Of a DNA stretch of 25,399 nt, positions 8,683 through 23,845 are shown piece after piece (within the stretch, counting starts at the first letter, position 1; every line of letters starts with the position of its first letter). The notes under the pieces are model-generated. The model saw only the letters and a program-made list of their open reading frames with translations, did not search any database and was not told where the DNA came from. Source of the DNA: a virus; IMG/VR virus record IMGVR_UViG_3300015165_000003, positions 1-25,399 of that record; one strand, 5' to 3'. A program made the translations under genes and the position numbers.

Positions 8683-9231
8683 ATGCCCATCGACTTCGAA
8701 GCACTCCTGGCCCGCAAGCGCCCGGCCACGGCCGAGTGCGTCATCGCCCTCGACGCCGAGGCGGTCGACGCCGTGGCCGCGGCCCGAGCTGTCTGGCAGG
8801 CAGCGGAGGCCGCGGCCATCGACCACCCCGAGCTGCGCTCGGCCCAGCAGGCCCGCGACAACGCCGAGGCGGCCCTGGACGCGGCCGAGAAGGCGGCGGC
8901 AGATGCGACGGCCACCTTCCGCTTCGAGGGCATCTCTGGCCCGAAGTGGGATCTCCTGGTCGACGCGCACCCGCCGACCGATGAGCAGGTCGAAAAGGCC
9001 CGGGCGGCCAAGGAGGAGCTGCCCACCTGGAACGACGACACCTTCCCGCCCGTTGCCGTGGCCGCCTGCTGCGTCGAGCCGGCCATGTCGCTGGAGCAGG
9101 TGCAGCAGCTGTTCGCCTCCGGCCAGTGGAACGCGGCCGAGACGCAGGGGCTGTTCAGCGCCGCCCACACCGCCAGCCGGACCCGGAGAGTGCCGCAGCT
9201 GGGAAAAGGATTTGGTCGGACCCTGAGCTGA
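8683..9231 (+). CDS. Tail assembly chaperone, short (gpG-like) form
   Basis: 182 residues; its ATG abuts the stop of the tail tube gene. It is acidic and Ala-rich with long helices (residues about 20 to 85), as in chaperones that coat the tape measure protein before tube polymerisation. Near its end, at residues 174 and 175, lies the codon pair GGA AAA within GGGAAAA, a canonical -1 frameshift heptamer in the correct phase, and the zero frame stops only 24 bases later. The position between tube and tape measure genes is the standard one. The product without slippage is this short form; the longer form is described separately. Confidence 0.75.
   Translation: MPIDFEALLARKRPATAECVIALDAEAVDAVAAARAVWQAAEAAAIDHPELRSAQQARDNAEAALDAAEKAAADATATFRFEGISGPKWDLLVDAHPPTDEQVEKARAAKEELPTWNDDTFPPVAVAACCVEPAMSLEQVQQLFASGQWNAAETQGLFSAAHTASRTRRVPQLGKGFGRTLS
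9201..9207 (+). promoter_or_regulatory. Programmed -1 ribosomal frameshift site GGGAAAA
   Basis: In the zero frame the site reads ct-G GGA AAA, giving the X XXY YYZ arrangement needed for two tRNAs to slip back by one base and re-pair. The -1 frame continues openly for another 133 codons including the stop. This heptamer is one of the most common slippery sites of tail assembly chaperone genes in actinophages. A purine run GGAGAG ends ten bases upstream, a spacing at which internal Shine-Dalgarno-like sequences can stimulate -1 slippage. Confidence 0.8.
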
Positions 9232-17559: not shown

Positions 17560-17675
17560 CCGATCTGCCGCCCGATCTGCCGCCCGTCGACGACACACCC
17601 CCCGGGCCGCCGGCCACCACCCGGGGCCCGGTGCCGGCCCCCCTGCACCCGGGGCGGGTCGATGGCGACCGCTGA
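17556..17675 (+). CDS. Tiny Pro-rich frame, doubtful
   Basis: 39 residues from a GTG overlapping the previous stop, ending inside the endolysin gene. Nearly half is Pro, Asp and Thr; DLPPDLPP comes from a twelve-base tandem repeat. Third positions are GC-rich. It may simply bridge translation to the endolysin, or be spurious. Confidence 0.3.
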   Translation: MTDLPPDLPPVDDTPPGPPATTRGPVPAPLHPGRVDGDR

Positions 17676-18384
17676 GGCGGCGCTGGGGTGGATGCGCGAG
17701 CGCATCGGCATCGGCGAGGACCCGCCGGGGAGCAATCACAACTCGATCACCGACTTCTTCGGCCTCGGCCCCGTCCCCTGGTGTGCGGAGTCGGTGTCGC
17801 TGGCCCTCAACAACGCCTGGGGCAACCAGGAGCGCTGGCAGGTGCCCGGGGTCAAGCCGGACTACCTGCTCGGCTTCGCCTACGTCCCCAACCTGCGGGG
17901 CGCCTTCATCGATGCCGGCCTCTACGACACCACGCCCCGGGTGGGCGACGTGGTCATCTTCTCCTGGGGACCGGGCGTGCCCATCGGCGACCACACCGGC
18001 CTGGTCGAACAGGTTCTCGGCGACGGCACCGTGGTCACCCTCGAGGGCAACACCGGCGACGACCTGCTGCGCAAGCGCCGGTCGATGGCCGTCATCGACG
18101 GCTTCGGCCACCCCCCCTACGACGCCGCGCCGACGCCGCGCCCACCTGGCAGTACCCCCCAACCGCCTCCCGAGGAGGACGACGACATGTCCGACAACAC
18201 GCTCTTCAACCACGGCGGCGGCGTGATCCTGCGCTTCGGCAACGGGGCCCTGCTCACCCTGGCCAACGACGACCAGGTCGGCTCCGAGCTGGCCATCAAG
18301 GCCCCCTCGCTGGGCGACGTGACCGACGAGCAGTACGCCACCCTGCTGCGGGGCGACCGGACCCCGCCGGGCCCGCCGGCGTGA
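17662..18384 (+). CDS. Endolysin with CHAP domain
   Basis: 240 residues; cuts host peptidoglycan at the end of infection. The N-terminal 155 residues form a CHAP amidase/peptidase: PVPWCAESVSLALNNAW contains the nucleophile Cys41, GDHTGLVEQV the His111, and LEGNTGDD the Glu128/Asn130 pair typical of the family. PRVGDVVIFSW is the conserved strand before the His. A Pro-rich acidic linker (157 to 175) leads to a C-terminal 65-residue part of unknown fold, likely a wall-binding domain. Inside the linker GAGGAGG lies eight bases before an in-frame ATG, so this C-terminal part may also be made alone. No signal peptide is seen, so release depends on a holin. Confidence 0.8.
   Translation: MATAEAALGWMRERIGIGEDPPGSNHNSITDFFGLGPVPWCAESVSLALNNAWGNQERWQVPGVKPDYLLGFAYVPNLRGAFIDAGLYDTTPRVGDVVIFSWGPGVPIGDHTGLVEQVLGDGTVVTLEGNTGDDLLRKRRSMAVIDGFGHPPYDAAPTPRPPGSTPQPPPEEDDDMSDNTLFNHGGGVILRFGNGALLTLANDDQVGSELAIKAPSLGDVTDEQYATLLRGDRTPPGPPA
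18187..18384 (+). CDS. Possible separate wall-binding subunit from an internal endolysin start
   Basis: An in-frame ATG (residue 176 of the endolysin) has a near-perfect Shine-Dalgarno sequence, GAGGAGG at 18172-18178, eight bases upstream. The 65-residue product (SDNTLFNHGGGVILRFGNGA and onward) would be the C-terminal domain alone. Several characterised endolysins make such truncated binding subunits from internal starts and assemble into oligomers with the full enzyme. The site also encodes the acidic linker EEDDD, so part of the purine richness could be due to protein sequence. Confidence 0.4.
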   Translation: MSDNTLFNHGGGVILRFGNGALLTLANDDQVGSELAIKAPSLGDVTDEQYATLLRGDRTPPGPPA

Positions 18385-20696: not shown

Positions 20697-21167
20697 GTCC
20701 CCATCACGCCCTGGCTCGCGAACGCGCTGAAGGTGGCGACCCGGGGCGGCGGGGCAAGGCGGTATCTCATCGCCGACTCGCTGGCCGAGCAGCTCGGCTT
20801 CGAGGAGCCGTTGGGAGTGGCGGGCATCCGCATACTGCTGAGCCTGCTCCCGAACCTGGAGGAAGTGCTGCTCGGCGATCCCGACGATTGGGTGTCAGGT
20901 GTCGACCTGCCCCGTCGCGTGGCGCTGGGGGCGGTTGGAGATCTCGACGAAGCCGGACTGGTGACGGCGCTGGTCGAGTTGGGGTGGTCGCGGCTGTCAC
21001 CGCCGCTGACCGTGCGCGACGCGGCCGAACTGCGGGACGCTCTGGCGGGGGCGTTGACCGAGCGCCTGTCGACGGGCCTTCGCGTGATGCTCGACGCGTG
21101 GCGCAACCGCGGCCTGTGGATCGCCGACCCCCGCCGTCCACCGCCGAGGGCGGAATCGTCGTCCTGA
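20661..21167 (+). CDS. Protein of unknown function, divergent partner
   Basis: 168 residues from a GTG (start uncertain); third positions are GC-rich throughout and neither the other plus frames nor the minus strand look protein-like over this stretch. Composition is Leu/Ala/Gly/Asp with helical segments (ITPWLANALKVATRGGGARR, then LSLLPNLEEVLLGDP, then LRDALAGALTERLSTGLRVM). It ends with LDAWRNRGLWIADP, which faintly resembles the DAWQRDRLL end of the minus-strand neighbour. No family recognised. If the GTG is right, the first 36 bases overlap the start of the opposite gene; a shared promoter region would then be missing, so one of the starts may be wrong. Confidence 0.5.
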   Translation: MVDDDEDWVNQHVPITPWLANALKVATRGGGARRYLIADSLAEQLGFEEPLGVAGIRILLSLLPNLEEVLLGDPDDWVSGVDLPRRVALGAVGDLDEAGLVTALVELGWSRLSPPLTVRDAAELRDALAGALTERLSTGLRVMLDAWRNRGLWIADPRRPPPRAESSS

Positions 21168-21227: not shown

Positions 21228-21260
21228 CCTGCCGGAGTCGGTTACGCGACGCCCGGCAGG
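21228..21260 (+). ncRNA. Strong hairpin preceding the tRNA-like fold
   Basis: CCTGCCGG pairs with CCGGCAGG (eight pairs), and inside it GTCG pairs with CGAC around a six-base loop, giving a 12-pair stem with a small internal loop. Its right arm (GCCCGGCAGG) could alternatively pair with CCTGCCGGG at the 3' end of the tRNA-like fold, so two exclusive structures are possible. Confidence 0.5.
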
Positions 21261-21266
21261 GTTTGC

Positions 21267-21335
21267 GCCCCCGCTGATGGAAGCAGGCCTCCCTTTCGCA
21301 AGGGAGGGTCGCAGGTTCGATCCCTGCCGGGGGTG
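21267..21335 (+). tRNA. tRNA-like element (reduced cloverleaf) or tRNA-derived attachment site
   Basis: The 3' half is unmistakably tRNA-derived: a T-arm GCAGG-TTCGATC-CCTGC followed by CGGGGGT and G. The 5' end GCCCCCG pairs with CGGGGGT (seven pairs, one G-U). Between them is a reduced D-arm (CTG, seven-base loop, CAG), an anticodon-like stem (CTCCC/GGGAG) with an eight-base loop TTTCGCAA instead of seven, and a four-base variable region. Total is 69 bases without encoded CCA. It may be a degenerate phage tRNA, a tRNA mimic, or an attP core copied from the 3' half of a host tRNA; the integrase lies about 1 kb away. Amino acid identity cannot be assigned. Confidence 0.5.
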
Positions 21336-21512
21336 CTAGAGCAGGTTACGTCGTTTGGCCCACCCGGCCAGCGCAGCCGCCCGGGCCAGCTCGCTGCGGC
21401 GCTTGGGGGACAATCGCTCGGACCGGATGAGCCCGCCTTTGCGGCCGGTCGCCACCGCCAGCTCGTGGAGCTGCTCGGCCGACCAGCCCGGGTGCTTCGC
21501 GCGACGAGGCAT
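21336..21512 (-). CDS. Small basic phage protein
   Basis: 58 residues from the ATG chosen because the preceding 18 in-frame residues are not protein-like. The sequence HPGWSAEQLHELAVATGRKG and LSPKRRSELARAAALAGWAKRR carry the pattern GRKGG-x(5-8)-LSP-x-RRSE-x-A-x-x-A-x-x-AxWAK seen in many small phage and plasmid proteins, probably nucleic-acid binding. Its stop codon directly abuts the 3' end of the tRNA-like element. GGAGGG directly precedes the ATG, too close for an ideal ribosome site. Confidence 0.55.
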   Translation of the reverse strand: MPRRAKHPGWSAEQLHELAVATGRKGGLIRSERLSPKRRSELARAAALAGWAKRRNLL

Positions 21513-21603: not shown

Positions 21604-21630
21604 CCCGTCCGCAAGGGCGGGTGTCTTTCT
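21604..21630 (+). terminator. Rho-independent-like terminator on the plus strand
   Basis: CCCGTCC, loop GCAA and GGGCGGG form a seven-pair stem with a stable tetraloop, followed by TGTCTTTCTT, a T-rich tail. All genes around it are on the minus strand, so it would stop a rightward transcript, for example one from the motif at 21181. Confidence 0.5.
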
Positions 21631-21653: not shown

Positions 21654-22178
21654 CTACATGGTCAGGCTGACAAGCCGCCACGTCTTCGCCGCAGGGTCAT
21701 GGACGACGGTGCAGGAGTAGGGCGAGCGCACCAGTGCGCCAAAGCCGTTCTGGGAGTCGACGCTGGCCACCACGACGTACGGCCCGTCGCCCGATCCCGA
21801 GTAGCTGACTTGGTCGCCCAGCGGATCCCGCCACTTCGCGGTGGCGGGCGCTTTCAGCGTGTCGGTCACGAAGGACTTGCACATCATGAAAGCGTCGTAC
21901 TCGCCAGACGACACCGACGACACCGACGAGTCCGGGCTGTCGTCCGGGCTGTCGCCCACCAACGCTCCCACCGCTATGAGGAAGACAACCACAACGGCGA
22001 TGATCAGAGCCCCTTGGGCCCGGCTGGTCAATCGATTCCACCAGACTGAGAAGCGGCCCTTGGCCTGCTCGTCCATTTGTGGGGGAGCTGGTGAGGGCGG
22101 CGGCAAGGGCGAGTGGGGCGCGTACCACCGCCCATCGGACCCGCGCCACCAGCCGGGGCCCTGCGAGCTGTCGCTCAT
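21654..22178 (-). CDS. Membrane-anchored protein with N-terminal DUF2510-like motif
   Basis: 174 residues; the start was chosen because AAGGAG lies ten bases upstream and the conserved motif begins right after it. Residues 1 to 20 contain GPGWWRGSDGRWYAP, like the DUF2510 motif common in actinobacterial membrane proteins. A Pro-rich stretch, one membrane span (about 56 to 76), a Ser/Asp linker and a C-terminal domain follow, with CKSFVTDTLKAPATAKW and SVDSQNGFGALVRSPYSCTV. Cys100 and Cys156 could form a disulfide outside the cell. This C-terminal domain is widespread in actinobacterial lipoproteins and membrane proteins. In a prophage lysogeny region it is a good candidate for superinfection exclusion; function is inferred. 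Confidence 0.65.
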   Translation of the reverse strand: MSDSSQGPGWWRGSDGRWYAPHSPLPPPSPAPPQMDEQAKGRFSVWWNRLTSRAQGALIIAVVVVFLIAVGALVGDSPDDSPDSSVSSVSSGEYDAFMMCKSFVTDTLKAPATAKWRDPLGDQVSYSGSGDGPYVVVASVDSQNGFGALVRSPYSCTVVHDPAAKTWRLVSLTM

Positions 22179-22361: not shown

Positions 22362-23183
22362 TCAGTAGTCGAGAGACGCGACCACTTCCCGAAGCGCCCG
22401 GGTCGTGGCCCGGGTGTACCGGCTCGTCGTCTCCGGTTTCGCGTGGCCGGCGAGCGACTGGACGGCGCGCAGGTTGCCGGTGTTGTCGTTGCCGGTGGCC
22501 AGGCAGGTGTGGCGCAGGACGTGCGGCGGAACGACCGGCACGCCCGCCTGCTCGGACACCATCCGCACCCAGGCCCACACGGTGGCCAGCGACACTGTCC
22601 CGCCGTAGCGGCCCGGGAACACCCACGGCCCGGACCGGCCCAGCTCGGCCATGGCGTCGACAATCGCGGGATGCAGCGGGATGCGCCGCTGTTTCGATCC
22701 CTTGCCCGTTGGAATGAGCAGGCCGGTGGGAAAGGTCGAGTCGGGCGCGTGGAACCAGTCCCAGCGTGTCCCGGCTATCTCGGCCCGTCGGAGCCCGGCG
22801 TACATCCCGAGCAGCACGGCGAAGCCGGGACGGTCACCGCGGGCTCGCGCCGCCTTGGCCAGGATGCGGGCATCGTCGGTCTCCTGCGCCTTGCACATCG
22901 GCTCGGGCTCGGGCGGTACCCGGATGGCGCGCAGTGGCGGATGGTCGCGGCCGACCAACTCCCAGTAGTACCGGAGCGCGCACCGCACGAGAAGGCGGCT
23001 GGAATGGGTCAGCGGTTTGGTGTCCGCGTACTCGACGACCCGGGCCGCCGGGAGCGTTTCCAGGTCGAGGCCCTCGGCGTCACACCACCGCTGCGCGGCG
23101 CCGATGGCGAGCGCGTAGAGGGTCGCTGTGCGGGGAGCAAGCCCGAGCGCGAGTAGGGCCGAGTAGTGCTTCGGGTCCGCCAT
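22362..23183 (-). CDS. int: Tyrosine recombinase (phage integrase)
   Basis: 273 residues from the ATG opening ADPKHYSALLALG; the 23 in-frame codons before it read as Arg/Pro-rich noise. Residues 1 to 90 are a SAM-like core-binding domain. The catalytic domain follows with Arg132 (GLRRAEI), Lys161 (TGKGSKQRRIPL), His221 and Arg224 (HVLRHT), His247 (LAGHAKPETTSRY) and the nucleophile Tyr256. All six are present, so the enzyme looks active and should catalyse integration at attP/attB. It lacks an N-terminal arm-binding domain of the usual size, being shorter than lambda Int (356). It is on the same strand as the repressor, 34 bases after it, so the two may be transcribed together. Confidence 0.9.
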   Translation of the reverse strand: MADPKHYSALLALGLAPRTATLYALAIGAAQRWCDAEGLDLETLPAARVVEYADTKPLTHSSRLLVRCALRYYWELVGRDHPPLRAIRVPPEPEPMCKAQETDDARILAKAARARGDRPGFAVLLGMYAGLRRAEIAGTRWDWFHAPDSTFPTGLLIPTGKGSKQRRIPLHPAIVDAMAELGRSGPWVFPGRYGGTVSLATVWAWVRMVSEQAGVPVVPPHVLRHTCLATGNDNTGNLRAVQSLAGHAKPETTSRYTRATTRALREVVASLDY

Positions 23184-23217: not shown

Positions 23218-23505
23218 TCAGGCCGCCGAACTGAGCAATCGGCCCTGGTCACGGATCGTAGCGGAGGCGCCGATGAGCCGTCGCGGCTCGGTGAAGAACA
23301 CCCCGGGATCGACGGCGAAGTAGTCGGCCAGCCTGCGCAGGTCGTTCACCGTGAAACGGCGGTTTCCGCCCAAACGCTCGTACACGCTCTTGCGGGCCAC
23401 TCCCAGGACCTCAGCCAACGCGCCAGCGTCGACTTCGTTGGCCGCCATCAACATCTGCACGACGAGCCGGACGTTGCGGTCTGCGTCACTCTTCTCGGTA
23501 GCCAC
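23218..23505 (-). CDS. HTH repressor (XRE/Cro-CI type), likely immunity repressor
   Basis: 95 residues from a GTG. The helix-turn-helix spans about residues 26 to 46 (DAGALAEVLGVARKSVYERL), followed by a helix pair RFTVNDLRRLADYFAV and DPGVFF, the typical XRE fold ending. No C-terminal dimerisation or peptidase domain of the LexA/CI type is present, so it is probably regulated differently from lambda CI. There is no ribosome site; a -10-like TAGTCT ends six bases before the GTG, implying a leaderless mRNA. Divergent position against the early rightward operon, and the adjacent integrase, fit a lysogeny repressor. Confidence 0.75.
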   Translation of the reverse strand: MATEKSDADRNVRLVVQMLMAANEVDAGALAEVLGVARKSVYERLGGNRRFTVNDLRRLADYFAVDPGVFFTEPRRLIGASATIRDQGRLLSSAA

Positions 23506-23596: not shown

Positions 23597-23845
23597 ATGC
23601 CGGATCGGAGTCCCGCCTTCCGCCACGCCGACGTGCTGCTCAAGGAGCAGGGAGGGATCGTGGCATTCGTCAACAGCCGTCGCGCCCTCGCTGGTCGACA
23701 GGGATCGTGGCGGCGGATCGCTCTCGAGCTCCGGGACCTCACCGACCGCGAAGTCGACCTCGACCAGTCGACGTTGCGCAGTTGGTCCGAGTTCGGGTGG
23801 TTCGATCCCACCCCCGACGACGAGCCGGCGGCGAAGACCGGATGA
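23597..23845 (+). CDS. Small HTH-type early regulator (Cro/excisionase-like candidate)
   Basis: 82 residues with the ATG seven bases after the -10 box and no ribosome site, thus probably translated from a leaderless mRNA. The middle (GSWRRIALELRDLTDREVDL, then QSTLRSWSEFGWFD) looks like a helix-turn-helix, with the second helix resembling a recognition helix. As first gene of the rightward early operon opposite the repressor it may act as Cro or as an excisionase; the sequence does not decide. The end is acidic. Its stop overlaps the next ATG (ATGA). Confidence 0.6.
   Translation: MPDRSPAFRHADVLLKEQGGIVAFVNSRRALAGRQGSWRRIALELRDLTDREVDLDQSTLRSWSEFGWFDPTPDDEPAAKTG

What the first reader, a model, noticed from the sequence alone, without database searches (positions are those of the whole stretch)
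21228..21335. A structured tRNA-like RNA with a truncated D-arm and an eight-base anticodon loop
A complete four-arm fold can be drawn: seven-pair acceptor, three-pair D-arm, five-pair anticodon stem, five-pair T-arm with canonical TTCGATC loop. It is preceded by a second strong hairpin whose right arm could also pair with the 3' part of the fold. No ordinary tRNA has this shortened D-arm together with an eight-base loop. It may be a phage tRNA mimic, a frameshift-type tRNA, a small regulatory RNA, or an attachment core taken from a host tRNA. The hairpin and the promoter-like motif upstream argue for an expressed RNA rather than a passive attP only.
Basis: partly seen in the sequence, partly recalled or inferred. 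Interest (0 to 1): 0.68.

Follow-up and report, generated by a model that had tools for sequence, protein, structure and literature searches.

The report
Decayed tRNA-Arg, probable phage attachment site
Next to its integration genes this bacterial virus carries a decayed copy of a bacterial arginine tRNA gene with an intact 3' end, most likely the site where the virus inserts itself into its host's chromosome, which is common in such viruses.

Summary
In detail: all four helices can be drawn at 21267-21335, with a 3-pair D-arm and an 8-base anticodon loop. The interpretation as a novel structured RNA is weak. ARAGORN calls nothing, the Rfam tRNA score is 19.5 bits (cut-off 29), and the cloverleaf is 7 kcal/mol less stable than the predicted fold. 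The element is better read as a degenerate tRNA-Arg. Its nearest relative found, a phage tRNA-Arg(CCG) in L037, shares 32 identical bases (21310-21341, from the T-arm to 6 bases past the discriminator), the unusual G1.U72 pair and the D-loop word GATGGAAG. It is the only clear tRNA similarity in the record and lies in a convergent gap at the end of a repressor - tyrosine integrase - small-gene block. Comparable tRNA-Arg sites are attP in VWB and RP3 and lie beside integrases in unrelated IMG/VR phages. Best reading: an attP whose 3' part is kept intact to rebuild the host tRNA-Arg on integration, while the 5' half has decayed. The host attB was not found, so attP is inferred. A decayed cargo tRNA is the main rival; a functional frameshift-type tRNA or mimic is unlikely.

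The parts
21267..21335 (+). degenerate tRNA-Arg (the element as a whole)
   Evidence: RF00005 19.5 bits end to end; best full-length tRNA match is L037 tRNA-Arg(CCG); no ARAGORN call
21310..21341 (+). probable attP core: T-arm, acceptor 3' strand, discriminator and 6 bases beyond, CGCAGGTTCGATCCCTGCCGGGGGTGCTAGAG
   Evidence: 32 identical bases with a complete tRNA-Arg gene and its 3' flank in L037
21288..21307 (+). anticodon-arm palindrome CCTCCCTT-TCGC-AAGGGAGG, read as a 5-pair stem with an 8-base loop
21228..21260 (.). upstream hairpin in the convergent gap, perhaps a bidirectional terminator
   Evidence: z -3.6
21336..21512 (-). 58-aa protein gene whose stop codon abuts the element
   Evidence: ORF with GGAGGG just before its ATG
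21654..22175 (-). 173-aa protein gene with a hydrophobic stretch, PHROG 13160
22362..23183 (-). tyrosine integrase, about 273 aa from its first ATG
   Evidence: PF00589 2.7e-17; phrog_1; PDB relatives XerA, XerD, Gp33
23218..23505 (-). HTH repressor-like gene
   Evidence: PF13560 below its cut-off, PHROG 2439 and 2328

Best explanation
The element is the phage attachment site (attP), built on a captured tRNA-Arg gene. The tyrosine integrase encoded about 1 kb away would recombine it with the matching tRNA-Arg gene of the host, and the phage-borne T-arm and acceptor strand would replace the host's and rebuild a working tRNA. Because the overlap must match a host gene and real tRNAs have a 7-base anticodon loop, the T-loop (as in phage Ms6) is a likelier crossover point than the 8-base anticodon loop. 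The 5' part of the phage's copy is never used by the lysogen and drifts, which explains an intact 3' end beside a shortened D-arm and an off-size anticodon loop. Shown: sequence, fold, homology to tRNA-Arg, gene context. Inferred: attP function, crossover position, identity of the host tRNA.
For: It is the only strong tRNA similarity in the record (local score 30, next 15.5; Redi's tRNA-like segment inside its rep gene scores 25 in the same test). A tyrosine integrase lies on the same side. 32 bases identical to a real tRNA-Arg end and its 3' flank. VWB and RP3 attP share the core type. L006 and L004/L007 carry tRNA-Arg 3' halves 150-400 bases from tyrosine integrases. Literature: actinophage attP usually holds 30-45 bp of a tRNA 3' half (PMC10865867); Ms6 uses a 26-bp T-loop core (PMC1762012).
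Against: No attB was found: exact scans of 84,980 genomes gave nothing. The integrase gene ends about 1 kb away with two genes between, further than in the comparators. No arm-type sites could be shown. No close relative of the phage was found.
Confidence: 0.66

Rival explanations
1. A decayed cargo tRNA: the phage once carried a working tRNA-Arg gene, as the L037 phage still does in an array, and it has become a pseudogene with no role in integration.
For: Both halves descend from a tRNA-Arg. The closest relative is a phage-borne cargo tRNA in a record without a detectable tyrosine integrase.
Against: Decay is uneven: the 3' end and 6 bases of its flank are untouched while the D-arm and anticodon loop are broken. 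It sits at the integrase block and the record holds no other tRNA.
Confidence: 0.22
2. The true attP lies inside the repressor gene (integration-dependent immunity, as in Redi, BPs and Brujita), and the tRNA-like element is a bystander, perhaps part of a transcription terminator between convergent genes.
For: Same rep-int order and an integrase 31% identical to Redi's; the window's rep ends in -SSAA and Redi's in -SAA; strong hairpins between convergent genes.
Against: Redi's rep holds an obvious antisense tRNA segment; the window's rep holds none.
Confidence: 0.07
3. A functional small RNA: a frameshift-type tRNA-Arg with anticodon UCG plus one base, or a tRNA mimic or decoy.
For: The four helices can be drawn and are beyond chance; the loop has TT before and AA after, with an Arg anticodon TCG and one extra base between.
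Against: 19.5 bits against 42-70 for most tRNAs of the L037 array (one there scores 26.7); no bases for positions 8-9; no ARAGORN call; no promoter-like site; cloverleaf about 1e-6 of the predicted ensemble; no relatives to show covariation.
Confidence: 0.04

Closest known systems
attP of Streptomyces phage VWB and actinophage RP3 (tRNA-Arg, anticodon CCT)
   Same: tRNA-Arg 3' end with the T-arm core GCAGGTTCGA(A/T)(T/C)CCTGCCGGGGG; VWB's lies beside int; RP3's annotated core runs into the D-stem
   Different: their anticodon loops are 7 bases and intact (CTCCTAA); here the loop has 8 bases and a 5' acceptor strand is also kept
Mycobacteriophage Ms6 attP (tRNA-Ala T-loop, PMC1762012)
   Same: core from the T-arm to the end of the tRNA, which does not need the anticodon loop
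   Different: other tRNA; the crossover was mapped there by experiment, here it is inferred
L037 phage tRNA-Arg(CCG), IMGVR_UViG_3300037851_000839
   Same: 32 identical bases at the 3' end and flank, G1.U72, D-loop GATGGAAG
   Different: a complete tRNA in an array of 15, no tyrosine integrase detected in its record
Mycobacteriophage Redi rep-int cassette (cluster N type)
   Same: rep-int gene order, integrase 31% identical, rep ending -SAA
   Different: its tRNA-like segment is inside rep; in this window it is about 1 kb beyond int

Membership tests
phage attP in a tRNA gene (tyrosine integrase) | tRNA 3' segment on the phage genome near a tyrosine integrase gene | tested here: met
   about 1 kb between int and the element
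phage attP in a tRNA gene (tyrosine integrase) | identical core in a host tRNA gene (attB) | tested here: inconclusive
phage attP in a tRNA gene (tyrosine integrase) | integration rebuilds a functional tRNA at a junction | not testable with these tools
   needs a lysogen or junction reads
functional tRNA | recognised by tRNA models above their cut-off | tested here: not met
   ARAGORN none; RF00005 19.5 bits, cut-off 29
functional tRNA | complete D-arm with positions 8-9 and a 7-base anticodon loop | tested here: not met
   15 bases between acceptor and anticodon stem (19 in L037), loop of 8
structured RNA under selection | compensatory changes in relatives | not testable with these tools
   no orthologous element was found
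integration-dependent immunity cassette | attP (tRNA segment) within the repressor gene | tested here: not met
   no tRNA similarity above background in 23218-23505; present in Redi

The most novel reading that the evidence does not exclude
The element is transcribed and acts as a tRNA-Arg variant with an 8-base anticodon loop (UCG plus one base), shifting frame at Arg codons, or as a mimic that occupies tRNA-processing or defence enzymes.
Probability: 0.04. Interest if true: 0.75.

Novelty: new member of a known kind. Interest (0 to 1): 0.2.

Why it matters
It gives a plausible attP, and so a predicted integration target (a tRNA-Arg gene), for an otherwise orphan temperate phage of a high-GC host. 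It also shows that an attP can keep traces of a whole captured tRNA, so odd tRNAs beside integrases should be read as attachment sites before they are read as new RNAs.

Tried and rejected
Relatives of the integrase and of the 58-aa protein in viral contigs: none by tblastn. Exact anticodon palindrome in viral contigs: none. D-loop plus T-arm pattern: only L037. So no covariation test was possible. One BLAST query used the wrong stretch of L037 and was repeated with the right one. A second T-arm-like motif at 23796-23812 inside a coding ORF was considered as attP and set aside: no tRNA-model support, ordinary codons. The partial repeat around CCTGCCGG and GGTTACG was considered as a second att copy or as arm sites; local alignment of the two flanks is not significant. 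Plastid-ycf2 and TCV_Pr matches on the minus strand are below their cut-offs; Plastid-ycf2 also hits true tRNAs antisense in L044.

Full report
What is there. The window is a complete IMG/VR record of 25,399 bases (linear), 70.8% GC. It runs from a major capsid gene (106-1005) through tail genes and a CHAP-domain lysin (17662-18384) to a block on the minus strand: an HTH protein 23218-23505, a tyrosine integrase 22362-23183, a 173-aa protein 21654-22175 and a 58-aa protein 21336-21512. The plus-strand ORF upstream ends at 21167. The finding lies in the 168-base convergent gap between that stop and the stop of the 58-aa gene.

The fold. The D-arm begins directly after the acceptor, leaving no bases for positions 8 and 9. 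The anticodon arm is a perfect 8-pair palindrome with a TCGC loop, which can be read as a 5-pair stem with an 8-base loop. The cloverleaf is not the favoured state (-29.3 against -36.3 kcal/mol, about 1e-6 of the predicted ensemble). Even so, the pairing is beyond chance for this composition: when the 5' half is replaced by other stretches of the phage, 121 of 50,678 give both acceptor and anticodon stems at tRNA-like spacing (0.24%). Rfam's tRNA model aligns end to end with 19.5 bits (cut-off 29; E 0.0023 in the record) and finds nothing else. ARAGORN finds nothing.

What it descends from. The 3' part GCAGGTTCGATCCCTGCCGGGGGTG has a single exact match in 2.9 million viral contigs: a complete tRNA-Arg(CCG) in L037, in an array of 15 tRNAs. 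Identity runs without a break over 32 bases, 21310-21341, including CTAGAG past the discriminator, and the odd first pair G1.U72 is shared. The 5' half aligns to the same tRNA with the D-loop word GATGGAAG; none of 4,614 window segments aligns as well. A gapped match of 66 query bases at 82% has E 2.5e-12 in that record. So both halves come from a tRNA-Arg, and the stretch between acceptor and anticodon stem is 4 bases shorter (15 against 19). The loop TTTCGCAA is most simply an Arg loop (TT-TCG-AA) with one extra base; this is my reading. The anticodon stem CTCCC/GGGAG is not that of L037 (TCGCC/GGCGA) but occurs in the tRNA-Arg(CCT) of L032 and L035, so the source was probably another Arg isoacceptor.

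Why attP. In a local-alignment scan of the whole record against 96 tRNAs this place scores 30 and no other exceeds 15.5; Redi's tRNA-like segment inside its repressor gene scores 25. Comparators carry the same type of core: VWB and RP3 (annotated attP), L006 (Arg CCT) and L004/L007 (Arg TCT, nearly identical to each other), with integrase genes 150-400 bases from the L006 and L007 sites. L006 and RP3 also keep tRNA sequence into the D-arm. Published work states that actinophage attP sites usually hold 30-45 bp of the tRNA 3' half, so that the tRNA is rebuilt at a junction (PMC10865867), and that Ms6 uses a 26-bp core centred on the T-loop (PMC1762012). A core that begins at the T-arm and tolerates an altered anticodon loop fits the Ms6 pattern better than the anticodon-loop pattern. 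That last step is inference.

What argues against certainty. No host is known. The integrase is compact, with PDB relatives XerA, XerD and a protein named Gp33, and is 31% identical to Redi's. In phages with such arm-less integrases attP can lie inside the repressor gene (PMC7194413; Redi). The window's repressor ends in -SSAA as Redi's ends in -SAA, but it holds no tRNA-like sequence.

Verdict. The evidence favours a decayed tRNA-Arg kept at its 3' end as an attP core, an ordinary feature of temperate actinophages, over a new RNA. A decayed cargo tRNA is the main alternative. The frameshift-tRNA and mimic readings have no support beyond the drawn fold.

Noticed in passing
window 23218-23505: The repressor-like protein ends ...GRLLSSAA, like Redi's repressor ...GTRDSAA, which hints at a degradation tag as in integration-dependent immunity, yet no tRNA-like attP lies inside this gene.
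   Followed up: partly
window 23796-23812: A second canonical T-arm-like motif, GGTGG-TTCGATC-CCACC, inside the plus-strand ORF 23597-23845 beside the repressor; about 0.1 such motifs are expected by chance in the record (both strands). No tRNA-model support.
   Followed up: partly
window 21604-21621: Plus-strand terminator CCCGTCC-GCAA-GGGCGGG then TGTCTTTCTT, resembling the anticodon-arm hairpin 21291-21308 (84% over 19 bases); it would stop late transcripts before they run against the integrase operon.
   Followed up: no
window 21240-21246 and 21344-21350: GGTTACG occurs only twice in the record, as a direct repeat on either side of the element; it could be an integrase or accessory site, or chance.
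   Followed up: partly
L006 around 9060-9150: A phage attP-like site whose tRNA similarity (Arg CCT) runs from the D-arm to the 3' end (27.1 bits), another case of more than the 3' half being kept.
   Followed up: partly
L045 1871-1953 (minus): An 83-base place that matches the two ends of the tmRNA model (66 bits) with only 10 bases in place of the long middle, near the integrase of the L007 phage.
   Followed up: no
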